A DNA stretch of 38,207 nucleotides from Chlorobiota bacterium (GTDB lineage: Bacteria; Bacteroidota; Ignavibacteria; OLB7): contig JAEUSP010000001.1 of the NCBI GenBank assembly GCA_016788565.1, positions 1 through 38,207 on the forward strand. The letters are read 5' to 3'. Below are positions 14,241 through 34,190 of this stretch, piece after piece. The notes below the pieces were generated by a model, which had not been told where the DNA came from, did not search any database, and saw nothing but the letters and a program-made list of their open reading frames with translations. Both the position numbers and the translations under genes were made by a program. Position 1 is the first letter of the stretch. Every line of letters starts with the position of its first letter.

Positions 14241-15547
14241 AAAATCTTGCGAAATTAGCATCTATCTGCTGTTGCTTTATGCTATGGCTATGTAGAAATC
14301 AGTCAACCTTTGCGCAAGATTGGAGTACAGTGTTCAAGAACGATTCGGAGACCTTCCGTCGAATTATCTGGTGTAATGATTCTGTTGCAATGGCGATTGG
14401 GAAACAAGGGACTGTTGCAAGAACTACTGACGCGGGGTTGAGTTGGACTACCAAGGATCAGCTTGATCCGGGGTTAAATATCGAATTAGCTGATGGGTGG
14501 TTTATTTCTCCTGACACAGCGTTCGTCACAGGCAACACTCGAATTTTCAAAACAACTGATGGAGGAGAATCTTACCAGAACAAGCTCCACCCGAACATTG
14601 ATTATGAAGGAAAAATAGGCTTACGCCTGACTATTGGTTTTGCAAGCCCATCAATTGGGATATGTGGAGGTAATTATGAGACTATGAATTTTAGATTCTA
14701 TCCTTCATTTTTTCGGACAACCAATGCTGGTGAAACTTGGGAAATTTGCGAAGGAGTTCCTGAAAAATTGATTGCAAGAGTTCAGATGTTTGATTCTGCA
14801 AAAGCAATTGCAATTGGCATTGATCAAAGTAGGATTCCGCCAGTATCCACCTTTTACCGCACATCAGATTTTGGCACAACGTGGGTAGGTGGAAAAGATA
14901 TTGAAGGAATAATCTCAAATTTTCACTTTGTAGATTCCTTGGTTGGATGGTCCTGCGGGCATGGGTCTGTTGTACGCCGCTCGATAGATGGAGGAGCCTC
15001 ATGGCAAGACTTTGAAACTGGAATATCACCTTGGTATTACGGACTTTGGGCCTATGACTCACTATCAGTTGTGCTCTGTGGAGTTAATGGAGATATAGTG
15101 CGAACACATGATGGAGGTAAAACTTGGAAATTAGAATCATCGTTCTTATCGCGCATTTTCCGCTCCATTCAATTTAATAGCAAAGGCATTGGTTTAGCCG
15201 TTGGAGAAGAGGGGGTGATTGCAAGGTTTGACCCCAACATATCCAATGTTCCGAATGAACAACAATCAACAACCAGTGCTGTAAAACAGTTCGCTGTTGG
15301 GTTGCAAACACCTGATATAAGCATGCTCCGATTTGAGATTACCCAGCCAATGGAGTTATCGCTAACGCTCTATAATTCCCATGGTGAAATTGTGCAATCC
15401 CAGCCTGCACGACCTTATGAACAGGGTATCCATTCTGTTCGCTTGGAAACAGTAGGATTGCCCTCAGGCGCATATTTCTGTTTTGGGCGTTGGGGAGCAG
15501 AACAGTATGTGAAACCTTCCAACTGCATGTTTATTGTGAATGATTAA
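14237..15547 (+). CDS. Secreted YCF48/BNR-repeat protein with T9SS-type C-terminal domain (paralogue)
   Basis: A 436-residue paralogue of the preceding protein. A signal peptide (LAKLASICCCFMLWLC...STFAQ, cleavage about residue 27) precedes roughly six YCF48 repeats (ARTTDAGLSW, FKTTDGGESY, FRTTNAGETW, YRTSDFGTTW, RRSIDGGASW, RTHDGGKTW). The C-terminus has the sorting-domain pattern MELSLTLYNSHGEIVQ, then QGIHSVRLETVGLPSGAYFC. The propeller of YCF48 proteins often binds protein partners or sugars; enzyme activity is not expected since sialidase catalytic residues are not evident. It starts inside the previous stop codon (ATGA, 14237-14240) and ends 31 bp before direct repeat D. Two adjacent paralogues suggest a local duplication followed by strong divergence. 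Confidence 0.82.
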   Translation: MKNLAKLASICCCFMLWLCRNQSTFAQDWSTVFKNDSETFRRIIWCNDSVAMAIGKQGTVARTTDAGLSWTTKDQLDPGLNIELADGWFISPDTAFVTGNTRIFKTTDGGESYQNKLHPNIDYEGKIGLRLTIGFASPSIGICGGNYETMNFRFYPSFFRTTNAGETWEICEGVPEKLIARVQMFDSAKAIAIGIDQSRIPPVSTFYRTSDFGTTWVGGKDIEGIISNFHFVDSLVGWSCGHGSVVRRSIDGGASWQDFETGISPWYYGLWAYDSLSVVLCGVNGDIVRTHDGGKTWKLESSFLSRIFRSIQFNSKGIGLAVGEEGVIARFDPNISNVPNEQQSTTSAVKQFAVGLQTPDISMLRFEITQPMELSLTLYNSHGEIVQSQPARPYEQGIHSVRLETVGLPSGAYFCFGRWGAEQYVKPSNCMFIVND

Positions 15548-15577
15548 ATATGCCCACACTCACAAGAAATGGGAAAC

Positions 15578-15689
15578 TTCGCCGTTCACTGGCCGCGCTC
15601 ATACTTCGACGGGGCTCAGCACGAGCGGGGGTGAGGTTCGCAGGTATCCCGTTCTTGCTTCTATTTCCTCCCTCCTATTTCCTACTTCC
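15578..15689 (+). repeat. Dispersed hairpin repeat, long copy D
   Basis: Matches copy C (10054-10165) in the same orientation: TTCGCCGTTCACTGGCCGCG, the core ATACTTCGACGGGGCTCAGC, and TTGCTTCTATTTCCTCCCTC. Copies C and D thus frame the sigma-factor block as direct repeats. Confidence 0.85.
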
Positions 15690-15767
15690 TACTTCCTACT
15701 TCCTACTCTTCTATTCGACATTCGACATTCGACATTCGGCATTCGCCATTCGCCATTCGCCATTCCC
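15679..15767. repeat. Two adjacent 7-bp tandem arrays
   Basis: Four copies of TTCCTAC (15679-15706), then eight head-to-tail 7-mers of the form ATTCG(A/G/C)C (15713-15767, last copy ATTCCCC touching the porU stop codon). They fill the gap between the convergent sigma-block genes and porU. Confidence 0.85.
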
Positions 15768-18700
15768 CTACCTCATCACCACCAACTTTTCAATAATCTC
15801 CTCGGTTGCGGTTCCGTCGCCGATTCGGATGCGGTAGTAATAGACCCCGTTGGCAAGGCGGTCGCCGTCGGCATCGAAGCCGTCCCACTCCACTTTGTTG
15901 AACCCGGTTTTCAGCGTGGCCGGGTCAATCGGGATTGTCCTGATTTTCCGCCCGCTGACGGTGAAAACTCCAATCTCCCCCTCGGTCGGTTGGTTCTCTC
16001 CCCCCACCATAAAGGTGAACGTTGTTTTGTTGGCAAAGGGGTTCGGCACGTTGGCAACCTGCCGCACGGTCAGGTTTTGCTCAACATAAAAAATGATGAT
16101 GTCGCTCTCCTGCTTGTTCCCGGTGGCATCGCTTAACACCACTTTCATGGAGTGCTCCCCCGGCGCAAGTTTGCTTTGTGGAATGTAGAACAGACTTGCA
16201 CGGTGGTTGTCGCCGGTTTTGGCGAAAGTCTCCCAGCGCGCCCCGGTTTTTCGGGCATCAATTTTATCAATGTCAAGGTAGATCACCACCGATGTCACGC
16301 TATCTAATTTCAAGATGGAGTTATCGAACAGCCGCACCTCGAACTCTGGAATTGGCCGCACAATGTCGCCCTCTATCAAGCGGTTCCGGTCGGCGTAGAT
16401 GGTTAGTTCGGGCTGTGTGGAGTCAATCCCGATGCGGAGGCTGGCGCGTCCCAGATTGTTCTGCGGATATGGCTCGGCGGGGAAATCGCTGGGGTTGGCA
16501 ACGGCTGTGAACTGCTGCGCATTTTTCAGTTTGTCGGTGGCAATCCGCAGCCCGGTGACGGCGGAATCCAACGGAGCCAGCACGCTAATCCAGATGGAGT
16601 CTTCAAGGCTAACCCCGCTTTCCAACTGCCGCCACAACACCACAGGGAAATTGCTGGCTGGATACTTCCGCGACAAATTCACCACGCTTCCGTTGGCAAC
16701 CGCTGGGAATCCTTGCAACACGGAATCGGGGGCCAGATGGAAGGTGGATGGAGTAATCGCTAACTCCGGCGAGGGATCGAACGCAAAGGAAATGGAGCGC
16801 AACCGCTGCGCGCTATCCTGGCCGAAGTTGGCTGCGGCCTCCAACCGTGGGTAGCTCTGGACGTTGATTCCGGAAAGGTCAATGGTTGCTTGCTGGGAAC
16901 GGATCAGCGTGTCGCGGCGGCCATCACGGCGCAGGCCGTAGATGGTGGTTTGCACCGGCGGCCCTGCCACATCCACCCTTGCGGATTTCCACGCCGTTGC
17001 CGGCCCAACTGTTGGGAAGGCCGCGCTTCCGCGTGGGACTAGCACCAGTGTGTCGAGCAACGTCAGCCGGTACGGAGGTTTCACCCCCGCTTTCCGCAGC
17101 GAGTCGGTGTTGCTCCAGATTTCCCGCACGCGGCTTGCGGGGATACCTTTTCCACCAATCATCGCAAACGATTCTTCGTTCAAAAAACGCCCGGCCACGC
17201 GGCTTCCCAATAACGTCAGTGCCTCGCGAAGGAAATCGCTGTGGCCCTGATCTAGGGCTTTGTCGTACTGCTGGTGGCTGAAGGCAACCAGCACCAAATC
17301 CCCAGCAAGCACTGTGTCGCGGACGAAGTCGCGGAAGCTGCGGAACGTCTCGCGGCTGGCGTTGAAATCATACACCCGCTTGGCTTTGGGCAGAATATCA
17401 TTGGGGGGAAGCACCAAAACATGGACACCATCCAACGGCAACGGCGCGTAGTCAATTCCGGGGTTTTCGCCAATTCGCATCTCCACAACTTTGGTATCGG
17501 GAACGCGGGTGTTTTCATCAATGAAACTTTGCCCAACAGAGTAGAGCTTGATAGGAACCGGAAGGAGCGCGGGGCCAATGCCACGTTCGTCGGCGGTTAG
17601 CTCGGCAATCTGTGATTCTTGCAGTTGGTTCTTCCCGCGAATGATGTATTCATCTGGGCCATCGGGCTGCACCGTGAACGACTCAATCAGCGGGAAAAGC
17701 GCGGCCGCGGCTGTGTCGCCGGTTGATGAGTAGGCGCGCCACCAGTAGGTGCTTCCCCCACGGTGGCTTTGCGGGATGCTGAAGCTCCATGTTGTTGTTA
17801 GCTCCTGCAACTGCATTGTTCCAAGCTGGCTGTTGGTGAATGGAGTTTGGAACAGCGGCGTGGTGTCCACGGCAATGATTGCGCCGGGGCCGCTGGCTGG
17901 GTTCAGCAGCCGGATCACCACGCTATCGTGGCTGGAAACCCGACCGTACGGGAGCGGCTCGAGCGGCAGCGGCTGGCTTCCGCGAATCCGCAGGCGAAGG
18001 GTCAGCACGTTGTCGTCGCGGTAGGATTCGGCGAATTTCTGTTCGGGGTCAATCTCAATCCTGATGGTGTACTCCCCCGGCTTCCCGCTGATTGGCAGCG
18101 TCAGGATTGCATCGGTGAAGTAGCAGATTCCATCCAACACAAGCGTGACGCGCTGCTCACTTCCCAAACGATCCACAATGGTGGCAACCACCGTCACCGC
18201 CGAATCAGGCTTTCCGGTTGGTTGGATCGGCAGGCCGAAATCCCACAAACGCACCCGCACCTTCACGGCAGTGTCGCCAATCGTTGGTGTTTGGTCGTTC
18301 AGGTTAGTGAGCGTCACGGTGTTGTTTTGCTCACGGACGGCAAGTTCCGGCGTGTTGCGTGCGGCAAGCTGCATGGCGGGGTCGCCAAGCAAGCAGTACA
18401 TCAGCAAGTGGTTGCGGGCGGGGACGTTGGCGAAATACCAGAAGTCGGTGACATCGCCAACAAAGCTGGTGAACATATCCCACTTTGTCTGGGTGAACAC
18501 TTGGCCAAGCGTTCGCTGATGCTGGGAAGTGATGTGGGAGACAAATCCTTGTTTCAGCAGCTCATCAACGTTGGTGTAGCTGAAACTGGTCCCGCCAATG
18601 GCGGCCACCGCGCCGGTGTGCGAGGTGACAAACCGCTCGTTCCGGTTCACCAAGCCTGGCTCGGCATAGGCCCCGGTTTGGCAGGAGTAGGTGGTGAGCA

Positions 18701-21700
18701 CGAAGTAGCGATTGCCAACGTTCAAGTCTTCGGGATAGCCGAAGTTGAGGTCGAAAATATCCACCGCGCCGTGGCCGCTGAACGTGACCCACAACGTCCC
18801 CTGGTTGATTTCTGAACGCGCCCAGTCGGCATCCAGATCATCGGGGAACGGCAAGCGATTGTCGGGTGAGGTGCGCACCACCATTCCAGTATCGCCGCAA
18901 AATTCCGGGGCAAGGGCGTAGGTGGTGGCAATCTGCTCGTGAAGCTCTTTGAAGTGGTCGCGCTGGCCGGGATCGCCGCCGCCAGCCAAGAAAACAAACC
19001 GTTTGTTCCAAGCATCGGGGGGAAGGTTTTCGTACTCGATGACTTTCCGCACCATGTTGTCGGCCTCGGCGGGGGTTCGCACGGGGAAGCGTCCGATGTA
19101 GTAATCGGAGGCCTGGGAAGTATCGCCAATTTTTACCGTCAGCAAGTAATCACTAACCGGGACACCGAGGCTTGGGACGTAATCAATCATCGTGGAGTTA
19201 TCGGCTTTCAGCATCGGGTCCCACGAAGCATCCCCCACCAGCAGAACGTACAGCGGCTTCGGCTGCGCCCACGATTGGCTGGCGTAGTGAAGAAAACGGC
19301 GGATGGCATAGCCCGATTTAATGCCGTCGTTGAATTCATCATACACCGTCTCAACATCCACCACCCGCACGTTCAAACCGCTCCGTTGGCGGCGGTGGTT
19401 GGCAAGCTCCTCGCTGGCTTGGCGGAAGGCTTTGTGGGTGATGATGAGCATATCCGCCTGGTTGGTTTCGGCAACCAACTCATCCTTTGGATGCCAACGG
19501 AGCAGCGGCGTTTTTGGTGAATCAAACAGGAACTCCTCCCCCGCGCCCCCCACCAGTGTGGCGGTTGCTTGCCAGGTCAGCCCGGGGAAGGTGCTGTTTT
19601 CCGGCATTGGAAAGAAGGCGTTGAAACTGATGCCCCGGTTGTTGTCGAAATCGGTTTTCATGAACTCCTGCGCCGAAGCTGGATTCCCTTTGATGGCGGC
19701 AAAGGACCACGCGGTGCTGGTCATGTCGTACCGTTCGATGTTGCGGCTTCCCAGCGATGTGAACAGCGAGCGCAGGTCGTTGGAAAACTCATCGCTGAAC
19801 CCGCCGCCGCTGGCAAACCCAGCAACAACAAAATTTCCATTCTTGGCAGCGTTCAGGAACTCCACCGCACGCTGATACTCCGCACTCGATTTCCCACGGT
19901 CAAGCGTCTGGAACCAAGACCGGCGGAGCACGGCCCCGGTGTTCACATCAATCTCGGCAATGTGCAGCCCCTGTTCCCAGGAAGCTGATCCAACAGCACT
20001 ATCGCCATACTCCGCCCGCCATTGCGGGTTGATCCGCTCGGGGCCTGGATAATGGCGCGAGGTAAACCGGAACAGCACGCCGCGCTGTTGGTTGGTAATT
20101 GCGGCGCGCCCCGTTGCCGAAGCCACCACCGTTGGCGGACTTGTGAACCCACCGACCACCACACGAATCGGCTTCCCCGACTCAGGAATTTTCACCTGGG
20201 TGCTTCCGCCGGATGATGCTGGCAGCCACGCCCCGCTGATCTGGAAGTAGTCAATCTTCACCGAGTTGGGAACGATTCCTGAAGGGCGGAGCGGCTCGAT
20301 ACGCAGCACGTTGCGGCCGTTGAACAGATAGCTGGAGGGGATGGAAAAACGGAAGGTGACATCGCCCGTGTCGTTGGTCAGGACGGTATCGCCAACGGTG
20401 GAGTAGGCGTTCAGCACAAACTTCAGCGGGTGGTCGGTGAAGTTGATTCCGGCAAGGCGGACGCTGAAGGTGACGCGCCCGTCGTGCTGGTAGTTGGGGA
20501 AGCAGGTGAAGGGGAACTCAATCCACCCTCCGTCGCGGATGTAGGTGGCATCGGTCCAGTACCACCGCTCGTTCTGCACACGCTCGTTCACGTGAAGCGT
20601 CAGCTCATCGCTGCCGTTCACGTTCATCCCCCCGAAGTACTCCTTATCCTGCTCGAAATGAAGCGTGGAGTCCACCGATTGAAGTTGCTGGTCGGCATTG
20701 GCGGCGGTGAGGGTTTGGATGCGTGGTTGCTCGGCACCAACACCATCCCAGCGGAGCAGGTAGGCGTTGGTGTCGGTGGTTTCGTCGAAGTAGAAACCTT
20801 CGGGAGATTGGTTGCGGCGTGCGGTGAACTCCACCCGGTCATCGGGATCGAATCGGCCGTTGCCGGCGCGGTCATCCAGAAACATCGGGACGCTTGCCGT
20901 GCGATTCCACAAGCGAAGATCAGTGATGCTTTTGCCGATAACGCCCCCGCCCCCCGCCGCCGCAACCTCCGCGCCGGTGATGGAATACAGCCCCTCGGTT
21001 GGTGTCAGCAACACCATTGCCTCCCCCATTCCGCCGGTAATCGTGACGGCGGCGGCTTGCAGTGCCGCACCCTGGTTGGAAGTTGCGGCGCGCCAGCGTT
21101 TGGCTTGTTGGTAGTTCAGCAGTGTTTGCGCCAGCGTTCGTTCGTAGTCGGGATTTTCGCGGTACTCCACCCCTTGCTTCCCCCCCCCTCCGGTTCTGCG
21201 CCAGGTGATGGTAAACGTCAGGTTTGGCTCAACCAGCAGTCGGTTTCCTTCGGCGGTTAGGGGGCGAAGGATGGCATCCACCATCCGCAGGCCACGCTTC
21301 ACGTACGGCATCCCAAGCTGTGCGCGCTGGGATTCAAGTTTCAGAAATGGGAGCGATGCGGGAAGTAGGAGCGTATCGCATGTGCCAGCCGGGTTGGGAA
21401 GTATCTGCAGATCAACGGCATCGAAGGGAATTGCAACCGAAACACGCACCCCCGGCAATCGGCTGCTATCGCCCGGAAGGATGTTTGCAAGCGCGTTATG
21501 GGCCACCGCCACACCGTTCCCCTGCTTACTGACGATTGCCCGCAGGTTGGCCAGTTGCGCGGTAATTCCTGCATCATCGGCACGCAGCAACCGGAACGCC
21601 CCTTGCGTTGGCTGCGGCTGTTGGGCAACCGTACGATTGCCAACAACCCCAACCAAAAGAAGGAGAACAACGGGAAGAAAACGGGACAGCAGTTGCACCA

Positions 21701-21701
21701 T
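15768..21701 (-). CDS. porU: Type IX secretion system sortase PorU (C25 peptidase family), unusually long
   Basis: A 1977-residue protein. I start it at ATG 21701, where a signal peptide begins (MVQLLSRFLPVVLLLLVGVV, ending near AQQ); the longer frame to 21812 adds 37 residues without signal character. N-terminal beta-rich regions resemble the PorU propeptide and pre-domain. The gingipain-like catalytic centre is in the middle: His977 in VTFSGHGAVD and Cys1007 in TTYSCQTGAY, with YVLLVGDASWDP upstream. Ig-like modules follow, and the C-terminus has a FlgD/CHU-type domain (GEIGVFTVSGRKIRT, VEWDGFDADGDRL, GVYYYRI). PorU removes the C-terminal signal of T9SS cargo and joins it to a cell-surface lipopolysaccharide. 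Porphyromonas PorU is much shorter, so several hundred extra residues here are unexplained. It is the last gene after four polysaccharide genes, 88 bp downstream of the O-antigen ligase-like gene. Confidence 0.9.
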   Translation of the reverse strand: MVQLLSRFLPVVLLLLVGVVGNRTVAQQPQPTQGAFRLLRADDAGITAQLANLRAIVSKQGNGVAVAHNALANILPGDSSRLPGVRVSVAIPFDAVDLQILPNPAGTCDTLLLPASLPFLKLESQRAQLGMPYVKRGLRMVDAILRPLTAEGNRLLVEPNLTFTITWRRTGGGGKQGVEYRENPDYERTLAQTLLNYQQAKRWRAATSNQGAALQAAAVTITGGMGEAMVLLTPTEGLYSITGAEVAAAGGGGVIGKSITDLRLWNRTASVPMFLDDRAGNGRFDPDDRVEFTARRNQSPEGFYFDETTDTNAYLLRWDGVGAEQPRIQTLTAANADQQLQSVDSTLHFEQDKEYFGGMNVNGSDELTLHVNERVQNERWYWTDATYIRDGGWIEFPFTCFPNYQHDGRVTFSVRLAGINFTDHPLKFVLNAYSTVGDTVLTNDTGDVTFRFSIPSSYLFNGRNVLRIEPLRPSGIVPNSVKIDYFQISGAWLPASSGGSTQVKIPESGKPIRVVVGGFTSPPTVVASATGRAAITNQQRGVLFRFTSRHYPGPERINPQWRAEYGDSAVGSASWEQGLHIAEIDVNTGAVLRRSWFQTLDRGKSSAEYQRAVEFLNAAKNGNFVVAGFASGGGFSDEFSNDLRSLFTSLGSRNIERYDMTSTAWSFAAIKGNPASAQEFMKTDFDNNRGISFNAFFPMPENSTFPGLTWQATATLVGGAGEEFLFDSPKTPLLRWHPKDELVAETNQADMLIITHKAFRQASEELANHRRQRSGLNVRVVDVETVYDEFNDGIKSGYAIRRFLHYASQSWAQPKPLYVLLVGDASWDPMLKADNSTMIDYVPSLGVPVSDYLLTVKIGDTSQASDYYIGRFPVRTPAEADNMVRKVIEYENLPPDAWNKRFVFLAGGGDPGQRDHFKELHEQIATTYALAPEFCGDTGMVVRTSPDNRLPFPDDLDADWARSEINQGTLWVTFSGHGAVDIFDLNFGYPEDLNVGNRYFVLTTYSCQTGAYAEPGLVNRNERFVTSHTGAVAAIGGTSFSYTNVDELLKQGFVSHITSQHQRTLGQVFTQTKWDMFTSFVGDVTDFWYFANVPARNHLLMYCLLGDPAMQLAARNTPELAVREQNNTVTLTNLNDQTPTIGDTAVKVRVRLWDFGLPIQPTGKPDSAVTVVATIVDRLGSEQRVTLVLDGICYFTDAILTLPISGKPGEYTIRIEIDPEQKFAESYRDDNVLTLRLRIRGSQPLPLEPLPYGRVSSHDSVVIRLLNPASGPGAIIAVDTTPLFQTPFTNSQLGTMQLQELTTTWSFSIPQSHRGGSTYWWRAYSSTGDTAAAALFPLIESFTVQPDGPDEYIIRGKNQLQESQIAELTADERGIGPALLPVPIKLYSVGQSFIDENTRVPDTKVVEMRIGENPGIDYAPLPLDGVHVLVLPPNDILPKAKRVYDFNASRETFRSFRDFVRDTVLAGDLVLVAFSHQQYDKALDQGHSDFLREALTLLGSRVAGRFLNEESFAMIGGKGIPASRVREIWSNTDSLRKAGVKPPYRLTLLDTLVLVPRGSAAFPTVGPATAWKSARVDVAGPPVQTTIYGLRRDGRRDTLIRSQQATIDLSGINVQSYPRLEAAANFGQDSAQRLRSISFAFDPSPELAITPSTFHLAPDSVLQGFPAVANGSVVNLSRKYPASNFPVVLWRQLESGVSLEDSIWISVLAPLDSAVTGLRIATDKLKNAQQFTAVANPSDFPAEPYPQNNLGRASLRIGIDSTQPELTIYADRNRLIEGDIVRPIPEFEVRLFDNSILKLDSVTSVVIYLDIDKIDARKTGARWETFAKTGDNHRASLFYIPQSKLAPGEHSMKVVLSDATGNKQESDIIIFYVEQNLTVRQVANVPNPFANKTTFTFMVGGENQPTEGEIGVFTVSGRKIRTIPIDPATLKTGFNKVEWDGFDADGDRLANGVYYYRIRIGDGTATEEIIEKLVVMR

Positions 21702-21789
21702 GATTGAAACGCTTGCGACAGTTGAAGTCAGTTGAAGCCACCAGTGGAAATCAGGTCGGCCTGAAGATGGGGTGTTGGCAACACAAAAG

Positions 21790-23181
21790 TCAAGCCCCCA
21801 AAACGGTAGCACCGCTGTTCGGTGCGGCAGCGGAATTTGGGAGCTGCAGATGCTGACCCGACAAATTTTTGCGCGGCTTCCACGCGCCGGGGAGGTAGGA
21901 AGTCATCACCATCACAAAGGGGTAAAACTGCTGAAGCCGTTCGGCAAACACTGGGGTGAACAGGCCGGAAAAGATCAGAATCAGAGTGCTGGAATAAAGC
22001 CACAAGGCAACAAAGCGATGAAACGGGCGGGCCGCAGCGTTGATGGTGCGACGGTGCATGGCAACCATTGCCGCAAGCACCCAAATCCACGCAAGCAAGC
22101 CAACAATTCCGCCGCGAAGCCACACGTACAAGTACGCGTTATGCGGGACTAGCTCGCTGACATTCTCATACTCCAAAATCGTGTAATTCTTGATCTTCTC
22201 CCCAAACGGATACCCATACCACGGATTTTCTACCAACATATTGGCAAGGTTATAGACCTCCAACGCACGATATGCCGCCGACCCTTCCTTCCCCGGCTCG
22301 GCAATACTGGAGAGGCGATCCACAAAACTCCCCAAGCCAATTCCCAAAATCCCGATAAAAAAGAGCAGAGTACTGGCAACAATGGCCCCTTTTGCGGCGC
22401 GGCGTTCGTTGCGGTTCATGGCAATGGCCAACACCACAACAGCAATAATTACTCCAATTAAATAACTGCGGCGAAGGCACATAACAAACATGATTCCAGT
22501 GAACGGAAGCGCGCAGAGTAGGAAGGTGCGTATTCGTCGGTAATAAGGGTCATCCTTCGGTTGTACGGCGTAGGCAACAATGGCCCCCACCACCATCAGC
22601 GCAAGAATCATGGCATCCCCCCATCCAGTAAGCAATCCCCACAACACACCAACGTTCAGGTAAATGGTGGATGCTTCGATGGTTTTATACACCCCGCCAG
22701 CAATAACAATCCATGCCATTAAATAGAGGTCGTCCGGCTCGAAAATCAACAACCACATAAAAAAGCAGAAAATGGTCATCGGGACGGCGAACATCTCCCA
22801 GGAGAAGCGGAACCCTTGTTCAGCAACAAACATTCGGATCATGGGGATCAGCCCACAGAAAATAGCAAGGGCGATCATCGGCCTTGATAACGAGCTTCGA
22901 TAAATGGTCAGGTGGCCACGGACCACTCGGCGAAGAATGCCGAAAATGGGAATTGAAAAAAGGATCACATCCAACAATCCGAACCGCCCGCCAACCCAGG
23001 GATCAAAAATGGAAAGAACAAAAGGGGAAAAATTATCGGGGCGGGTTTCGTAATGAAGAATAAACACCGTCAGCAGCACAACCAATACCCCGCAAGGGTC
23101 GCCAGCATGATACAACCACCGCTGTAGCGGCGGCCACGGCGGCCATTGCGATTGGGAAAATGTGCTCTGTTCGGTTTGCAT
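21790..23181 (-). CDS. O-antigen ligase/polymerase family membrane protein
   Basis: A 463-residue protein with about 11-12 membrane segments. The large periplasmic loop near residues 310-370 contains MLVENPWYGYPFGEK and SELVPHNAYLYVWLRGGIVGLLAW, the typical PF04932 (WaaL/Wzy-like) signature with its conserved HN pair. An earlier arginine-bearing loop (LRRSYLIGVIIAV) also fits. Members either polymerise O-units (Wzy) or ligate polymer to lipid A core (WaaL); sequence reading alone cannot tell which. It lies 16 bp after the GT4 glycosyltransferase and directly before porU. If it makes or attaches the surface polymer to which PorU links cargo, the gene order would make functional sense; this is inference. 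Confidence 0.85.
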   Translation of the reverse strand: MQTEQSTFSQSQWPPWPPLQRWLYHAGDPCGVLVVLLTVFILHYETRPDNFSPFVLSIFDPWVGGRFGLLDVILFSIPIFGILRRVVRGHLTIYRSSLSRPMIALAIFCGLIPMIRMFVAEQGFRFSWEMFAVPMTIFCFFMWLLIFEPDDLYLMAWIVIAGGVYKTIEASTIYLNVGVLWGLLTGWGDAMILALMVVGAIVAYAVQPKDDPYYRRIRTFLLCALPFTGIMFVMCLRRSYLIGVIIAVVVLAIAMNRNERRAAKGAIVASTLLFFIGILGIGLGSFVDRLSSIAEPGKEGSAAYRALEVYNLANMLVENPWYGYPFGEKIKNYTILEYENVSELVPHNAYLYVWLRGGIVGLLAWIWVLAAMVAMHRRTINAAARPFHRFVALWLYSSTLILIFSGLFTPVFAERLQQFYPFVMVMTSYLPGAWKPRKNLSGQHLQLPNSAAAPNSGATVLGA

Positions 23182-23197
23182 AGCGTGTTGTGGGGAT

Positions 23198-24412
23198 TTA
23201 GCGAAGCCCGCGCCCAGTTACTTGTTCCAGCATCCGGATTATTGCATCGGCAAAGGTGTCCATACTGAACCGGTGTTTGGCGCGTAGCTTCCCCCGTTGG
23301 CATTGTTCCTGGCGGGTGTTTGGGTCGTCCAAAAAATGGAGCATTTTTTCCAGCAAATCATCTACATCTCCGGCCTGAAAAATATATCCGGCATCTCCAA
23401 TCACCTCTGGGATTCCTCCGCTGTTGCTGGCAATAATTGGAGTTCCGGCAAGCATCGCCTCAACATTCACCCGCCCAAACTGCTCATCAATTTCGGCGCG
23501 GCTGGGAAGCACCATTGCGTCGGCAGCAGCGATGTAGTATGGCATTTCTTCTTGCGGAACCACATCACGAAACGCGACCCCCGAAAGCTGAAGCGATTCG
23601 GCTTGTTGGCGCAATGCCGGCTCGTAATCCCCCCTTCCCACAATTAACAATCGAATCGCTTGGTTGGGGCGTTGATGCTGCAACAGGGAAAACGCTTCGA
23701 TAAGGTCTTGCACCCCTTTTAATTCCACTAACCTTCCGGCGAACAGGAATATCACCTCACTATTATTTTCATCATTACTCAAGCCAAGTTTTTTTCGGGC
23801 CTCCTGCTTGTTAATCTCCACAAACAGCGTGTCGTTCACGCCGTAAAATTGTTCAACAATCGGCCCCTGAAATCCAAGTTCTTGCAGCGCGGCAACCGCC
23901 TTGCTGTTGATGCAAAATGCCGCCGTCATCCGGGGGATCATCAGTCGTGATAGCAGGCTGTAGAGCGGCCCCAGCCGATAGGCAAACGTTTTGAAAGAGG
24001 CGATGTGATTGTTATAAAAAATGATTGGGACGCGGCGAGCCAGCAGCCACCGTACAAGCATAATTTGCACAGCAAAAAAAGAGAAACCTTCCTCCAACAT
24101 CAGTATCACTTGCGGGCGCGAGTGGCGGAAAGCGCGAATCAACCCCGTTAAATAAAATCCACGTTGCGCTTGGCCTTTTGCAGCAACCTTCCCCAAAACA
24201 ACGGGGAATGGATCCGATTCCGGCGACTGGTAGCGAATTACTTTATCGTTTTCAATCCAAGCGGTTGGCGCAAGAAGGGTGATGCCAACATTGGCGCGCT
24301 CAGCAACCAGAAAATGCCGCCAACGCACCGAACGCAGCACCGAAACTTTGTCAATAACCAGCACCCGCAACGGCGGCCCCAGCGTTCGATCTGCCGGCAA
24401 TATCTCTGGCAT
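23198..24412 (-). CDS. GT4-family glycosyltransferase
   Basis: A 404-residue GT-B fold enzyme. The N-terminal Rossmann-like domain starts LRVLVIDKVSVLRSVRW; the C-terminal domain has FLFAGRLVELKGVQDLIEAF (typical KG motif, about 222-241), LLIVGRGDYEPALR, and the E-x7-E motif within EQFGRVNVEAMLAGTPIIAS (donor binding). These are hallmarks of retaining GT4 transferases using nucleotide sugars, most often in polysaccharide assembly at the cytoplasmic membrane face. It is separated by 3 bp from the upstream chain-length gene and 16 bp from the downstream polymerase/ligase gene, so it is plainly in one operon. Sugar specificity is unknown. Confidence 0.9.
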   Translation of the reverse strand: MPEILPADRTLGPPLRVLVIDKVSVLRSVRWRHFLVAERANVGITLLAPTAWIENDKVIRYQSPESDPFPVVLGKVAAKGQAQRGFYLTGLIRAFRHSRPQVILMLEEGFSFFAVQIMLVRWLLARRVPIIFYNNHIASFKTFAYRLGPLYSLLSRLMIPRMTAAFCINSKAVAALQELGFQGPIVEQFYGVNDTLFVEINKQEARKKLGLSNDENNSEVIFLFAGRLVELKGVQDLIEAFSLLQHQRPNQAIRLLIVGRGDYEPALRQQAESLQLSGVAFRDVVPQEEMPYYIAAADAMVLPSRAEIDEQFGRVNVEAMLAGTPIIASNSGGIPEVIGDAGYIFQAGDVDDLLEKMLHFLDDPNTRQEQCQRGKLRAKHRFSMDTFADAIIRMLEQVTGRGLR

Positions 24413-24415
24413 AAT

Positions 24416-25666
24416 TTATTTGTTGCTTCCAGGATCAATCTGCTTGTGGTTCATGGCTTGCTGTTTATTGGAATAGATTCCACGTTGCAAGCCATCATAG
24501 AGATACACGCCCAGCACGGAAAAGGCTGTCAGTAAAATTCCAGTAACGGCAACAATGATTGTTTTGCGTGGGGCCGATGGATATAATGGAGTAGTTGCCC
24601 AATCCAGCACCGAAACCGTGGGAAGCTCTCGCGCTTCTTGGATTTTCTCCTGATTATATTGAGCCTCCAACAGCATATACACCTGCGTTGTCACCTCAAG
24701 ATTTAATTTTAACGTGGCGTACTGGCGTGCAAGCTCTGGAACATTTTTGAACGGTATTCCCAGGGCATCAACACCACTGTTCCCCGTTTCCACATTCTGT
24801 TGCTGGCGTTGCAGCAATGCTAATTGCGAACGTAGCGATTGCACCGTGCGTTGATCCGAATTCAAATCCGACTCGGCGCGGATAAGCTCTAATTTCGCTT
24901 TTTGGATCATCGCTTGGGTTTCAATCACCGAACTCAGTGCGGCATCCAACTGTTTATCCAACGCAATCGCCTTATTCTGCTCTTGGAATGCCTGCATCGC
25001 ACGCTGTGCGGAATCCATTTCCTTCCGCTTCTCCTCTTTCATTTTTTCTAAAAAAATTCGTGAGCGGCGAGCACGGGTAACGCTTTTTTGTTGGTTCAGT
25101 TTATCAAGAATTTCAATGGCGTTATTGATGAGAGTAGCCGTAAATGTAGCCACCTCCTGCTGTTCGGCTTTGTCTGATAGAAATGATGTTTTTTCGTTGT
25201 ACGTAACAGATATCACCCCTTGCTTATCTGACTCGGCCTCAATTCGCCCCATCACTTGCTCGATTGCCAGCGAGCGTTGTGCTGAATCAACATCATACCG
25301 CTGCAGCAGGTTCAGCCGGGTTACTAAGCTATCGGCCAGTGAGCGGCTGGTCAAGATTTTCACAAACACTTCCGCCGATGAGTTTTGGCCAAGCGATTTC
25401 AGATCAAACCCCGAACCGCCGCCAAGAATCAGATTATTCAGAGACATTCCTTCCGATTTTTCGGGAGGCAACAACACAGCCCCAGCCGTGAATGTTTTGG
25501 GCATGATAAACGAATAAACAATCACCAGCACAAGCCCTGTAAGAATAATTGTTAGCAACAGAGAACGATACCGGAGTAAAACTGCGAGATAATCACGCAG
25601 ATTCATCACGGGAGGTAGGTTAGGATTCTCAGGCACGTGGATTGGATATTGTGTTGGGTCGGTCAC
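24416..25666 (-). CDS. Wzz/GNVR-type polysaccharide chain-length or export protein
   Basis: A 416-residue inner-membrane protein. A Wzz domain starts with NLRDYLAVLLRYRSLLLT and the first membrane helix (about 35-53), then MPKTFTAGAVLLPPEKSEG. A long periplasmic coiled-coil part (about 180-310, KMKEEKRKEMDSAQRAMQAF) leads to the GNVR-like segment and the second helix (about 370-392) after VLDWATTPLYPSAPRKT. No cytoplasmic tyrosine-kinase domain is fused. Its role is to set polymer length and couple synthesis to export. The start used is GTG 25666; no clear ribosome-binding site precedes it, and ATG 25606 (before NLRDYL) is an alternative. It follows the Wza-like gene by 26 bp. Confidence 0.88.
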   Translation of the reverse strand: MTDPTQYPIHVPENPNLPPVMNLRDYLAVLLRYRSLLLTIILTGLVLVIVYSFIMPKTFTAGAVLLPPEKSEGMSLNNLILGGGSGFDLKSLGQNSSAEVFVKILTSRSLADSLVTRLNLLQRYDVDSAQRSLAIEQVMGRIEAESDKQGVISVTYNEKTSFLSDKAEQQEVATFTATLINNAIEILDKLNQQKSVTRARRSRIFLEKMKEEKRKEMDSAQRAMQAFQEQNKAIALDKQLDAALSSVIETQAMIQKAKLELIRAESDLNSDQRTVQSLRSQLALLQRQQQNVETGNSGVDALGIPFKNVPELARQYATLKLNLEVTTQVYMLLEAQYNQEKIQEARELPTVSVLDWATTPLYPSAPRKTIIVAVTGILLTAFSVLGVYLYDGLQRGIYSNKQQAMNHKQIDPGSNK

Positions 25667-25692
25667 GGTAGGTACGGTTGCTGAGGGAGGTC

Positions 25693-27360
25693 TTAGTTCT
25701 TGTTATTTAGCAAGCCAACAACTACGGCAATCACGGTAGCGACCTGTGCAACAATAGTAATTGCAGTAGCGAACCCTGACCAGAAATCCCCTTTTGCTTT
25801 TTCGGGGACAAAAATTGCATCCCCCGACTCGATGCTGTAATCATCTTGGCTGTCGGCAAGGAACGTTTCTCCGGTTCTTCCTTTTATCACTTTTTCTTCC
25901 CCTTCTTCAGCGTTCCAGCCGTAGCCGCCAGCAAGTTGGATGTATTCACGGAAGGTACGGTCAGCAACGTAAGAGATATTTCCCGGGTTTTTCACTTTTC
26001 CGCTGACTTTCACGAACCCACGGGTTTGCGGGACAAATACTGAGTCGTCATGCTGAAGGAATAAATTTTCGGATTCATCGTTATTCATCAGCTTATTAAA
26101 ATCTACGGTAAGAATTCCAGGGCGCTGGAACTCGCGATTTTTTACGCGGAAGTACTCTGTCTCTTCGGGGGTGCGTTGGTCGGGATCAATTTGGGCGATG
26201 CGGCCATATTCTGGGTCCTGCTCGATTAACCGGCGGCGAATTAACACGGCATCAGCAAGGGATGCTTGTTCGGTGAATCCGCCAGCGCGTTGGATAATTT
26301 CACGCAGCCGCGTTGAGTGTGGCTCGATAGAGTAATACCCAGGATATTTTACCTCACCCCACACCACTACCCTGCTTGCTGCATGGAAGCCCTTCTTCTG
26401 GCGAACAAATACTTGATCCCCAATTTCTAACGGGCGGTCGCCGAGTATTTGGCCATCGGGGGTGGCGCGCAGGAAGAGGCGTTGGCGGATATTCCCAACT
26501 TCATCCACTGTCACCACTTCAATGGAGTCGGTCACAGCGTCCACGGTGAACCCGAAGGCGTAGCGAATAAGGCTTGAGACGGAGTCACCGTGATGCCACG
26601 TGAACTCGCCGGGGCGTTGCACGCCGCCGGTGATGATGATGATGTTACGCTGATCCTGCACCCCAACTTTCACCACATCCCCCCCTTCCACCGTGGGGTT
26701 TGCCGTCAGGTCGCCGTTGGCATAAAACGGGACAAGATCAACGGGAATGATTTGGCCGTTGCGCACAATTTGGATGTCGCGTTTGGAGGAGCGTGTGCTG
26801 GCTCCGCCGGCCAAATCAATCACCTCCGAAACCCGTGTTACCGGCGTGGCAACCACCATTCCGGTGCGCCGAACGGATCCGATAACCGACACTTTGAACT
26901 GCCGCATCCGCCGCAGCGACACCGCCGCCGTGGGGTCGCGATAGACGCGCGCAATTGCTTGCTGGATAAGAACCTCCGATTCGGCAAGCGAGCGGTTTCG
27001 CAGGTCAATCGCGCCAACGCCAGGGATTATCAGCTTGCCATCGGGGGCAACCACTAGCTCATATTGGATTGGCTTGGAGAGGGTGAGCATCACGGTCAGT
27101 TGGTCGTTCGGGCCAAGCTGGTAGCGTTCGGGGTCAATTGGGCGTTCCAGTAGCGCGCTTGACTCAAGGCTGCGCTGGCTTAGTTCGCGGGTGAGGGTGG
27201 TGTCGAACGGTGTGGACTGGCCCGTGGTTCCAACCCCACGTGGCTCTTCGCCGGTTGATGGCTGGGAATGGCCACGCCCCGGCGCGCACAACCAAAGCAG
27301 AACAACAAGCCAAGCCGCAAGCCATTGGTATGACCTGGATAACAGCAGTTGATGTTTCAG
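25693..27360 (-). CDS. Wza-like SLBB-domain polysaccharide export protein, probable CTG start
   Basis: A 555-residue outer-membrane/periplasmic export protein. It contains a Poly_export domain (YQLGPNDQLTVMLTLSKPI, GKLIIPGVGAIDL, then QAIARVYRDPTAAVSL) and three or more SLBB domains (VSVIGSVRRTG, IIITGGVQRPGEF, VVWGEVKYPGYYSI, VKVSGKVKNPGNI). A C-terminal hydrophobic segment (FATAITIVAQVATVIAVVVGLL) ends it, as in several Bacteroidota exporters. No ATG lies upstream of the domain. Extending the frame to CTG at 27360 yields a proper signal peptide (LKHQLLLSRSYQ, then WLAAWLVVLLWLCA), and that CTG sits 7 nt after a perfect AAGGAGG; an in-frame TAA at 27373-27375 rules out more distant starts. 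A TTG at 27291 is the other option, but it would lose the signal peptide. First gene of the polysaccharide operon. Confidence 0.88.
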   Translation of the reverse strand: MKHQLLLSRSYQWLAAWLVVLLWLCAPGRGHSQPSTGEEPRGVGTTGQSTPFDTTLTRELSQRSLESSALLERPIDPERYQLGPNDQLTVMLTLSKPIQYELVVAPDGKLIIPGVGAIDLRNRSLAESEVLIQQAIARVYRDPTAAVSLRRMRQFKVSVIGSVRRTGMVVATPVTRVSEVIDLAGGASTRSSKRDIQIVRNGQIIPVDLVPFYANGDLTANPTVEGGDVVKVGVQDQRNIIIITGGVQRPGEFTWHHGDSVSSLIRYAFGFTVDAVTDSIEVVTVDEVGNIRQRLFLRATPDGQILGDRPLEIGDQVFVRQKKGFHAASRVVVWGEVKYPGYYSIEPHSTRLREIIQRAGGFTEQASLADAVLIRRRLIEQDPEYGRIAQIDPDQRTPEETEYFRVKNREFQRPGILTVDFNKLMNNDESENLFLQHDDSVFVPQTRGFVKVSGKVKNPGNISYVADRTFREYIQLAGGYGWNAEEGEEKVIKGRTGETFLADSQDDYSIESGDAIFVPEKAKGDFWSGFATAITIVAQVATVIAVVVGLLNNKN

Positions 27361-27367
27361 AACCGTT

Positions 27368-27374
27368 CCTCCTT
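27368..27374 (-). promoter_or_regulatory. Strong ribosome-binding site deciding the CTG start
   Basis: AAGGAGG on the minus strand, 7 nt before CTG 27360. It overlaps the region just after an in-frame stop, so it can only serve that start. The remaining intergenic DNA to 27599 contains no convincing gene and presumably the operon promoter. Confidence 0.7.
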
Positions 27375-27599
27375 AGTGAATAGGACTTCTGGAATGAGAG
27401 AAAAAGGGCAACCGCAGATGCTTGATGTACTCAGCGGAGGGTGCCCATAACCCGATACGTGAGAGATTGCGTGTGCGCAGAAGCAGTAGTAACCGAAGCG
27501 ATAGCGTAGGAATTGTTGATTTGCTGCTGAAAAACGGCAGCCGCAACATACACCGAAGCAGCATTCATACAAGCCCAAAAATCTATCTACTGCGCTTGC

Positions 27600-28574
27600 T
27601 TATCCTTGCATACGTTCGGCGATGTGAGCAATCACCACTTCGGCATGATGCCTTCCGTTTTCGATGAATACTTCCCATGTTCGGCAACCACACACCACCG
27701 ACCCAGCCAAGTATAGCCCCGGCACGTTGCTCTCGAACGTTGCTGGGCTGAACAACGGGATCAGCGTTTCAAGGTCGTAGGCGATGCCGCAGGCGCGGAA
27801 CAGATGCTCGTCGGGGCGGTGGCCAATCATTGCAAACAGCGCGTCGCACGGGAGGGTTGCTGTTTCCCCGTTGGTGTTGTGCTGCACGGTAACTCTGGTT
27901 GGCTCTATCTGCAGAACGTGGCTGTTCCACAGCATGGCGATCTGCCCGTTGGCCAAACGGTTTTCGATGTCGGGCCTGATCCAGTATTTCACGCCACGCC
28001 CCAGCTCTCCCTGCCGATGCACCATCGTCACCGAAGCACCATGCCGGTACAGGTCCAGCGCGGCCTCCACCGCAGAATTCCTTCCGCCAACCACCACCAC
28101 CTGCTTGCCAAAAAACGGGAACGGTTCCTTGTAGTAATGATGCACATGGGGCAAGTCTTCCCCCGGAACCTTCAGCCGGTTGGTAGTGTTGAAGTAGCCG
28201 GTAGCCAGCACCACAAAACGGCAGTCGAACGCCCCAAGCGATGTCTGCACAGCAAAGCCCCCGTGCTGCCTGCGCTCCACCCCGGTCACGCTTGCCCCTT
28301 GCTGGATTTTCAGCCCCCGCGTCCGGACAACGCCACGGTAGTATTGGATAGCCTCGGCCCGTGTTGGGCGGAAATTGGGTGAGGTGAAGGGCATATCCCC
28401 TAACTCCAATAAATCAGGGGTGGAGAAAAAAGTCATGGCGGTTGGATAGCCAACAATGGTGTTCACCACTGTTGCTTGCTCCAGCACCAGATAGCGCAGC
28501 CCCAACGATTCGGCGTGCAGCGCGCACGCTAACCCCGTTGGCCCGGCACCGATAATGATGAGGTCATACTCCAT
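27600..28574 (-). CDS. YpdA-like bacillithiol disulfide reductase (FAD/NADPH flavoprotein)
   Basis: A 324-residue flavoprotein of the thioredoxin-reductase-like fold. The FAD-binding dinucleotide motif is IIIGAGPTG (6-14), the NADPH motif is VVVVGGRNSAVEAAL (159-173), and a C-terminal block SNVPGLYLAGSVVCG ends the FAD domain. The sequence VGYPTAMTFFSTPDLLELG (41-59) is characteristic of the YpdA family. The classic CxxC redox pair of thioredoxin reductase is absent, as expected for YpdA. It should reduce bacillithiol disulfide with NADPH and keep cytoplasmic thiols reduced. It is transcribed leftward, divergent from hemF. A bacillithiol synthesis locus is not visible in this window. Confidence 0.88.
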   Translation of the reverse strand: MEYDLIIIGAGPTGLACALHAESLGLRYLVLEQATVVNTIVGYPTAMTFFSTPDLLELGDMPFTSPNFRPTRAEAIQYYRGVVRTRGLKIQQGASVTGVERRQHGGFAVQTSLGAFDCRFVVLATGYFNTTNRLKVPGEDLPHVHHYYKEPFPFFGKQVVVVGGRNSAVEAALDLYRHGASVTMVHRQGELGRGVKYWIRPDIENRLANGQIAMLWNSHVLQIEPTRVTVQHNTNGETATLPCDALFAMIGHRPDEHLFRACGIAYDLETLIPLFSPATFESNVPGLYLAGSVVCGCRTWEVFIENGRHHAEVVIAHIAERMQG

Positions 28575-33987: not shown

Positions 33988-34190
33988 GTTGCCCTTCCAA
34001 AAGGGAGTGCGAAAATAAGGCACTGAGGAAGGGATTGCAAGTGTGGTTTACAACTCCACATATTCCCCCCAAGAAACAAGTGCGTATTTGGGACACCGGC
34101 TCCTGAATTTTCAGCATCCTCCATTGTGAACATCCTTGAAAAGTGAACATCTCAACAGTGAGCAACTCAACATCTCAGAATCAGCAATTC

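What the first reader, a model, noticed from the sequence alone, without database searches (positions are those of the whole stretch)
15768..27360. PorU encoded as the last gene of a polysaccharide synthesis/export operon
wza-like, wzz-like, GT4, O-antigen ligase/polymerase and porU run on one strand with short gaps (26, 3, 16 and 88 bp). Known: PorU joins T9SS cargo to a lipopolysaccharide in Porphyromonas. Inference: this operon could encode the acceptor glycan and its sortase together, a direct genetic link between glycan assembly and protein anchoring.
Basis: partly seen in the sequence, partly recalled or inferred. Interest (0 to 1): 0.65.

Follow-up and report, generated by a model that had tools for sequence, protein, structure and literature searches.

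The report
PorU-like protease capping glycan operons
A second, PorU-like surface enzyme, distinct from this bacterium's ordinary protein-anchoring sortase, is the last gene of a sugar-polymer operon, and its relatives often sit directly after sugar-polymer genes, which suggests that cells pair a protein-attaching enzyme with the glycan it attaches to.

Summary
The five-gene run is real: Wza, Wzz, GT4, Wzy_C and a C25 peptidase, minus strand, gaps 26, 3, 16 and 88 bp. The name porU is wrong in the strict sense: the protein scores 260 bits against the PorU model (cut-off 420) and the genome has a true PorU elsewhere (783 bits). In a C25 tree it lies outside a fully supported PorU clade, among long C25 paralogues ("LC25"). 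LC25 keeps PorU's N-terminal, catalytic and C-terminal regions; 25 of 26 members, and 0 of 21 PorUs, carry a FAM3/POMGnT1-stem-like (ILEI) domain.

The gene order is kept in 4 of 5 family genomes; the fifth lacks the orthologues tested. More widely, 26 of 47 LC25 loci (8 of 12 families) have co-directional glycan genes within 5 kb upstream, against 2 of 20 PorU loci; my markers favoured LC25 somewhat.

Best reading: a second, glycan-dedicated T9SS sortase-like transpeptidase. Linkage is shown; transpeptidation and acceptor are inferred. A co-regulated surface protease is the main rival. The window's ILEI domains lack the known GlcNAc-binding residues, and four LC25 families are unlinked. New variant of a known kind.

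The parts
25693..27360 (-). Wza-like outer-membrane polysaccharide export protein (SLBB, Poly_export); probable CTG start at 27360 after AGGAGG (ATG/GTG/TTG frame starts at 27291)
   Evidence: Pfam SLBB 1.4e-31, Poly_export 2.2e-11; start and SD
24416..25666 (-). Wzz-like chain-length protein
   Evidence: Pfam Wzz 7.3e-09, GNVR 5.3e-10
23198..24412 (-). GT4-type glycosyltransferase
   Evidence: Pfam Glycos_transf_1 1e-35; best NCBIfam EPS HpsO, below cut-off
21790..23181 (-). Wzy_C-family integral membrane protein (polymerase or ligase)
   Evidence: Pfam Wzy_C 1.1e-13; conserved PHN motif in 4 of 4; low-confidence model matches WaaL 7tpg E 7.9e-4
21702..21789 (-). 88-bp gap Wzy to C25; no promoter- or terminator-like site
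15768..21701 (-). LC25: long PorU-like C25 protein, 1977 aa, ATG start followed by a signal-peptide-like N-terminus (read by eye)
19683..19973 (-). ILEI (FAM3/POMGnT1-stem-like) domain N-terminal to the protease domain, residues 577-673; GlcNAc triad not conserved
   Evidence: Pfam 8.4e-19; Foldseek POMGnT1 stem; triad test
18366..19451 (-). Peptidase_C25 domain, residues 751-1112; His977 (codon 18771-18773) and Cys1007 (codon 18681-18683)
   Evidence: 3.4e-70; GH and C invariant in 26 of 26 LC25
17142..17387 (-). second, degenerate ILEI-like domain, residues 1439-1520, at the place where other LC25 members carry theirs
   Evidence: weak (E 0.4); G002 orthologue 5e-05 at the same place
15777..16433 (-). 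PorU-type C-terminal region with T9SS-type terminal domain
   Evidence: NF033707 positions 873-1094, 101.9 bits; TIGR04183 22.5 vs cut-off 23

Best explanation
The last gene encodes LC25, a paralogue of the T9SS sortase PorU, made together with the machinery for one particular exported glycan. Shown: conserved gene order, a PorU-like frame, an intact His/Cys pair, and a separate PorU, PorV and PorZ in the same genome. Inferred: LC25 leaves the cell through the T9SS by its C-terminal domain, stays on the surface through its PorU-like C-terminal region, and cleaves the sorting domain of a subset of T9SS cargo, joining the new C-terminus to an amino group on the glycan assembled by GT4/Wzy and exported by Wza/Wzz. 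PorU serves the general anchor and LC25 a second glycan, so that enzyme and acceptor are inherited as one cassette. The ILEI domain would help to hold or present glycan in members that keep its sugar-binding residues.
For: Order conserved in 4 of 5 family genomes; the fifth lacks the tested orthologues. Overlap or 14-bp gap between Wzy and LC25 in G003. 26 of 47 LC25 loci, 22 of them with two or more glycan genes, against 2 of 20 PorU loci; Pfam confirms a glycosyltransferase in 13 of 14 upstream genes sent from linked families. LC25 profile matches the solved PorU 6za2 (222.8 bits) far better than gingipains (at most 67 bits) and includes PorU's C-terminal region. His/Cys invariant in 26 of 26. 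ILEI in 25 of 26 LC25 and 0 of 21 PorU; R-D-R triad kept in all 5 f2/f3 members tested, in 1 of 5 f9 members and in L082. PorU, PorV and PorZ over cut-off elsewhere in the genome. f2 clusters also hold an amidotransferase of the WbpS type implicated in the P. gingivalis linking sugar.
Against: No transpeptidase or substrate evidence. LC25 is unlinked to glycan genes in f10, f14, f6 and f15, and in a second f2 clade. The window's two ILEI domains lack the R-D-R triad (for the first; the second is too weak to be aligned there and reads without it by eye). No VimA-type FemAB match in the own genome, so the known linking-sugar route is not evident. Below cut-off for PorU and PorU2. PorV2-like shuttle not linked except within the genus. 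C25 family members are also ordinary proteases.
Confidence: 0.45

Rival explanations
1. LC25 is a gingipain-like surface endopeptidase, itself T9SS cargo, co-expressed with an exopolysaccharide because both belong to one surface or biofilm programme; it degrades proteins or matures adhesins and makes no glycan bond.
For: C25 domain with intact catalytic pair; T9SS-type C-terminal domain near the cargo model's cut-off; the best fold matches of the 700-residue model are gingipains K and R, ahead of PorU; glycan linkage absent in four families.
Against: By sequence profile the family is far closer to PorU than to gingipains, also outside the catalytic domain; other T9SS-type tails in this genome match the PorU model only over its last ~100 positions while LC25 matches 873-1094.
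Confidence: 0.28
2. The linkage is genomic convenience: LC25 was captured beside a polysaccharide locus in an ancestor of each family and carried along without functional coupling.
For: Order is not kept beyond the family with this Wza-Wzz-GT4-Wzy set; class Wza-Wzz clusters mostly lack C25; the linked label changes about 8 times on the tree.
Against: Gene order survived at 38-52% identity while flanks changed; different glycan sets but the same relation, LC25 downstream and co-directional, often overlapping; PorU control low.
Confidence: 0.17
3. LC25 acts on the glycan pathway itself, for example as a surface glycan-binding assembly or proteolytic maturation factor for the exported polymer, not on T9SS cargo.
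For: ILEI fold, a sugar-binding fold in FAM3/POMGnT1 proteins, in 25 of 26.
Against: PorU frame and T9SS-type tail; sugar-contact residues lost in f1; known Wzx/Wzy systems need no such factor (recalled).
Confidence: 0.08

Closest known systems
PorU, T9SS sortase (P. gingivalis; NF033707; PDB 6za2)
   Same: N-terminal region, C25 catalytic domain with His/Cys, C-terminal region with T9SS-type domain
   Different: Below family cut-off; separate clade; 1977 vs 1360 aa; ILEI (and in many members CARDB) domains besides the PorU-like blocks; encoded at the end of a glycan operon; true PorU is elsewhere in the genome
PorU2 (NF052324, putative second T9SS sortase)
   Same: Long C25 protein beside PorU in the same genomes; best NCBIfam model for several LC25 members
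   Different: Window protein 237 bits vs cut-off 450; six of seven sampled PorU2 form their own clade; PorV2 directly upstream in the 2 genomes with over-cut-off PorV2 (G122, G135), few glycan neighbours
Exosortase/PEP-CTERM with EPS loci (XrtA) and rhombosortase with wbp/vim loci
   Same: A C-terminal-processing enzyme encoded with exopolysaccharide genes; the window Wza and GT4 match EPS/XrtA-associated models, below cut-off
   Different: Different enzyme family and membrane; no exosortase match in the own genome and none over cut-off in 12 searched
Gingipains RgpB/Kgp (C25 proteases)
   Same: C25 catalytic fold
   Different: Sequence profile at most 67 bits vs 222.8 for PorU
FAM3/POMGnT1-stem (ILEI) domains
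   Same: Fold and, in f2, f3 and one f9 member, the sugar-contacting Arg-Asp-Arg
   Different: Triad absent in the window protein

Membership tests
PorU (NF033707 equivalog_domain) | Score over curated cut-off 420 | tested here: not met
   259.7 bits; own PorU at C5 782-783
PorU (NF033707 equivalog_domain) | Groups with PorU orthologues in a tree | tested here: not met
   20 PorU rows one clade, SH-aLRT 100; 7 rows 100/100
PorU (NF033707 equivalog_domain) | Catalytic His and Cys of C25 | tested here: met
   H977, C1007 invariant in 26 of 26
PorU (NF033707 equivalog_domain) | Cleaves sorting domain and joins cargo to A-LPS | not testable with these tools
   biochemistry needed
PorU2 (NF052324) | Score over curated cut-off 450 | tested here: not met
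   236.8 bits
PorU2 (NF052324) | PorV2 gene adjacent (not a stated criterion; seen in 2 genomes) | tested here: not met
   PorV2-like gene lies about 7 kb upstream of Wza on the other strand, and on other contigs in G002, G003
T9SS type A cargo (TIGR04183) | C-terminal sorting domain over cut-off 23 | tested here: inconclusive
   22.5 bits; Pfam FlgD_ig 25.4 vs 27
Peptidase family C25 (PF01364) | Score over gathering 23 | tested here: met
   237.6 bits
Wzx/Wzy-dependent EPS locus | Wza, Wzz, GT and Wzy-type genes present | tested here: met
Wzx/Wzy-dependent EPS locus | Wzx flippase and priming transferase in the locus | tested here: not met
   none in the five genes; rest of genome not searched for them
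Exosortase system | Exosortase (PF09721) in genome | tested here: not met
   0 matches in G000; 1 of 12 genomes, below cut-off
POMGnT1-stem-type GlcNAc binding | Arg-Asp-Arg contacts | tested here: not met
   Q-S-T in the window domain; RDR in f2, f3, one f9, L082

The most novel reading that the evidence does not exclude
LC25 proteins are a second class of T9SS sortases, each dedicated to the glycan made by the gene cluster it terminates, so that a cell carries parallel sortase-glycan pairs: general PorU with its anchor and LC25 with a cluster-specific, exchangeable glycan. It would be the outer-membrane, T9SS counterpart of exosortase/EPS loci.
Probability: 0.35. Interest if true: 0.85.

Novelty: new variant of a known kind. 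Interest (0 to 1): 0.6.

Why it matters
In T9SS bacteria the sugar that anchors secreted proteins is known in very few species and its biosynthesis is not conserved between them (PMC11969387, passages). If LC25 is a sortase, its position at the end of glycan clusters gives the address of candidate acceptor-glycan genes, and makes the question 'which glycan is used by which sortase' testable by genetics and C-terminal glycoproteomics. It would also show that protein anchoring and glycan assembly are inherited as a cassette.

Tried and rejected
Rejected: that the window gene is the genome's PorU. Rejected: that LC25 is simply PorU2 (237 of 450 bits; most PorU2 in a separate clade; different neighbours). 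Considered and dropped: a PorV2-LC25 pair, because the PorV2-like gene at 34143-35255 is near LC25 only in this genus and also exists in G004, which lacks LC25. Considered: PorZ linkage; PorZ is 8 kb (G003) and 12 kb (G001) from the cluster but on other contigs in G000 and G002, so left as a side note. Sugar-binding by ILEI in the window protein: not supported. Structure models were weak: mean pLDDT 65.3 for residues 541-1240 and 58.9 for Wzy; only domain-level matches are used. Ligase versus polymerase: not resolved.

Limits of the linkage test: the profiles for GT4, WecG, GT2, GT9, Wza, Wzz, Wzy and GLF were seeded mostly from LC25 neighbourhoods, which favours LC25. A Pfam tally of 55 co-directional PorU-upstream genes (of 56 listed; one overlapping ORF left out) showed no glycosyltransferase among its 25 commonest families, but 5 genes with Polysacc_synt (flippase type), so the PorU control is not free of glycan genes (111 families matched, 25 shown). 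Loci are not independent; the family-level Fisher p is 0.024, the locus-level 0.00086. Dropped before the count: L064 and L067 (no flank), L182-L185 (a third C25 type, scored nearer PorU), L039 (G001, linked), L003 (PorU at a contig end). Included although unlinked: second copies L058b, L059 (two), L061, L076, L186b, L190-L192; L186b has only about 2.6 kb between it and the first copy. In one search rows shorter than 280 or longer than 520 residues, and the duplicates L079-L081, were left out; L193 was skipped for length and L064/L067 were left out. PorU2 alignment A4 used 10 PorU2 proteins; L198 (frame broken by stops), L205 and the partial second copy in L199 were left out.

Not answered: identity of the ~450-aa outer-membrane-like genes downstream of LC25 in f9/f11 and of window 35368-37815; searches failed on wrong coordinates of one co-submitted protein, and the last family search was then spent on the PorU control.
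Full report
Observation. The minus strand of the window carries Wza (25693-27291, more likely from a CTG at 27360 that follows AGGAGG), Wzz (24416-25666), a GT4 glycosyltransferase (23198-24412), a Wzy_C protein (21790-23181) and a 1977-residue C25 peptidase (15768-21701). The promoter scan found no sigma-70-like site in 14500-28500 (9.0 expected by shuffling) and no terminator-like site in the Wzy-C25 gap; a scan for Bacteroidetes-type motifs found none in the gaps. These scans are weak evidence for one transcript.

The last gene is not PorU. Against NCBIfam it scores 259.7 bits for PorU (cut-off 420) and 236.7 for PorU2 (cut-off 450). The genome has two C25 domains: the window gene and one at G000:C5, which is PorU with 783 bits (782.4). 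PorV (258.8 bits, cut-off 250) and PorZ (308 bits, cut-off 260) are also present on other contigs, so the cell has its own PorU attachment set apart from this operon. In a tree of 101 C25 domains, 20 PorU rows form one clade (SH-aLRT 100) and the window protein falls with its three family orthologues among 35 long C25 rows of the class and one outside row (40-row clade, SH-aLRT 99). A second tree of 64 rows by a more careful search again gives PorU as one clade (100/100) and the family orthologues as one clade (100/99); the deepest forks are weak and LC25 as a whole need not be one clade. I call these proteins LC25, a working name of mine.

What LC25 looks like. A profile of 26 LC25 proteins finds PorU 6za2 as its best solved structure (222.8 bits, two stretches: N-terminal plus catalytic region, and the C-terminal region), with gingipains at 67 bits or less. 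The window protein alone finds only PorU (73.9 bits). In the own genome LC25 matches the PorU profile at 873-1094 with 101.9 bits, whereas the 16 other tails listed match only its last ~100 positions at 45 bits or less. His977 and Cys1007 are invariant in 26 of 26 LC25, and the matching pair in 21 of 21 PorU. The ILEI domain is found in 25 of 26 LC25, 0 of 21 PorU and 3 of 10 PorU2; CARDB in 18 of 26, 0 of 21 and 3 of 10. ILEI-fold domains of FAM3 and POMGnT1 bind sugars; in POMGnT1 Arg129, Asp179 and Arg207 are directly involved (PMC9802357, abstract and passages). Mapped by alignment, this triad is complete in all 5 f2 and f3 domains tested, in 1 of 5 f9 domains and in L082; the other f9 domains keep Asp and Arg; one f11 member keeps Asp-Arg and two keep only the last Arg; f1 (the window included), f5, f12 and f13 have lost it and f14 keeps it in part. 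So sugar binding by this route is not supported for the window protein. The family f1 has an extra ILEI domain before the protease domain; the one at the usual place is degenerate. A model of residues 541-1240 (mean pLDDT 65.3) matches gingipains, PorU, the POMGnT1 stem and CARDB domains.

Linkage within the family. The five genes are in the same order in G001, G002 and G003, whose contig lengths equal those of records JADZEY010000018, JAFDZV010000036 and JAGWAZ010000002 (titled Armatimonadetes SJ842, Bacteroidetes SZAS-92 and Chlorobiota 277c_20; the titles disagree and I do not assign a class). In G002 and G003 the proteins are 38-52% identical to the window's and the window's other neighbours that I searched for are missing, except YpdA fragments in G003. 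In G003 the LC25 frame overlaps Wzy by 4 bp or starts 14 bp after it, depending on the start chosen. G004, in the same genus as G002 and 95% complete, has no LC25 (its best C25 match is a PorU-type tail, 9.5e-23), no Wzy match and only a distant Wza paralogue; Wzz and GT4 orthologues were not searched genome-wide there. So 4 of 5 family genomes have the set and the fifth lacks the three orthologues tested.

Linkage beyond the family. The Wza/Wzz set is not beside LC25 in other families, and Wza-Wzz clusters elsewhere in the class mostly lack C25. But reading the LC25 neighbourhoods showed other glycan genes directly upstream: GT4 in f2, f3 and f9, WecG/TagA/CpsF in f5, f9, f11, f12 and f13, with GT2, GT9 and UDP-galactopyranose-mutase-like genes further up (names of the last by eye). 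Pfam gave a glycosyltransferase family for 13 of 14 nearby upstream genes sent from linked families (one 454-residue membrane protein had none) and for 0 of 4 sent from f14, f10, f6 and f15. In G033 LC25 ends a 21-kb run that begins with Wza-Wzz and a Wzx-like flippase and includes a WsfD-type transferase and an amidotransferase. With local profiles, 26 of 47 LC25 loci (8 of 12 families) have at least one co-directional glycan gene within 5 kb upstream and 22 have two or more; for PorU it is 2 of 20 (1 of 9 families), both a GT9-type gene in f13, and none has two. Fisher p is 0.00086 by locus and 0.024 by family, with the biases told under Tried and rejected. Against the rule: f10, f14, f6 and f15, and a second f2 clade, are unlinked; f10 LC25 mostly follows DUF4835, which I recall as the T9SS protein PorD.

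Mechanism. In P. gingivalis PorU cleaves the sorting domain and joins cargo by an isopeptide bond to A-LPS presented by PorZ (PMC8545088, passages), through an amino-acid-modified uronamide sugar of the Wbp/Vim pathway (PMC7468200, passages and section 20; PMC11969387, passages). The linking sugar differs between species. PMC7468200 section 20 notes that vim-type and WbpS-type genes sit beside exosortase genes, or occur in genomes with a rhombosortase, in other bacteria. LC25 fits this pattern on the T9SS side: PorU frame, intact catalytic pair, glycan genes next door, and in f2 a TIGR03108-like amidotransferase in the cluster (429.0 and 435.5 bits, below cut-off 816.9). The own genome has TIGR03108-like genes only on other contigs and no TIGR03019 match, so the chemistry of the f1 acceptor is unknown. 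I rate the glycan-dedicated sortase reading at 0.45, a co-regulated surface protease at 0.28.

Novelty. PorU2 and PorV2 exist as NCBIfam models, so a second T9SS sortase has been proposed in a database. I found no paper linking a PorU paralogue to glycan gene clusters: searches 'PorU2', PorU with paralog/glycosyltransferase/gene cluster/C25, exosortase with type IX, PorU with Ignavibacteria, 'second sortase', peptidase C25 with polysaccharide biosynthesis, PorU with Wza and Kapabacteria with type IX, in the open-access library only; of the listed papers I read passages of four (searches cover five papers, one of them on FAM3). The linkage is therefore a new variant of a known kind, not a new kind.

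Noticed in passing
L182, L183, L184, L211, L212, L096, L116, L084 (downstream of the C25 gene): A further group of C25 proteins (~1600-1890 aa, mostly scored nearer PorU in the catalytic domain) is followed, one or two genes later, by a gene that matched the Wza profile (about 180 aa where read), in several phyla; in Zixibacteria L084 a Wzz-like gene follows.
   Followed up: no
G001:C18:21945-24176 and G003:C18:34586-36826: PorZ, the A-LPS delivery protein, lies about 12 kb and 8 kb from the LC25 cluster in these two genomes, but on other contigs in G000 and G002.
   Followed up: partly
window 15770: Nucleotide synteny with G001 (window 34361-15770) stops right after the C25 stop codon; what follows in G001 (the PorZ block) is at the start of contig C80 in the own genome, so a rearrangement or assembly join lies here.
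   Followed up: partly
window 34143-35255 +: PorV2-like protein (NF052325 188 bits, cut-off 325; PorV_fam 122 over 90), conserved as one best copy per genome in most of the class genomes searched but near LC25 only in this genus.
   Followed up: yes
PorU-upstream genes of L162-L181: 5 of 55 co-directional genes upstream of canonical PorU match Polysacc_synt (flippase type); the tally does not say which, but the position suggests f2.
   Followed up: no
L052, L055, L069, L074: In four of six f10 loci LC25 directly follows a DUF4835 gene (recalled as T9SS PorD).
   Followed up: no
L043:6323-6656: Two fragments of YpdA (residues 6-78 and 279-318) just upstream of Wza in G003, where the window has an intact YpdA: a remnant or a shortened gene.
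   Followed up: no
G000:C48 (L140) and G004:C12 (L139): A second polysaccharide locus with a nucleotide-sugar dehydrogenase, an epimerase-like gene and Wza/Wzz paralogues, present also in the genome that lacks LC25.
   Followed up: no
window 15620-15768: Short degenerate repeats (gaatggcgaatg..., gaagtaggaagtag...) directly after the C25 stop.
   Followed up: no
window 14500-28500: No sigma-70-like promoter site where 9.0 (sd 2.5) are expected by shuffling.
   Followed up: no
G001:C119:54648-54866: An 87-residue open frame 84% identical to the C-terminal domain of the window C25 protein.
   Followed up: no
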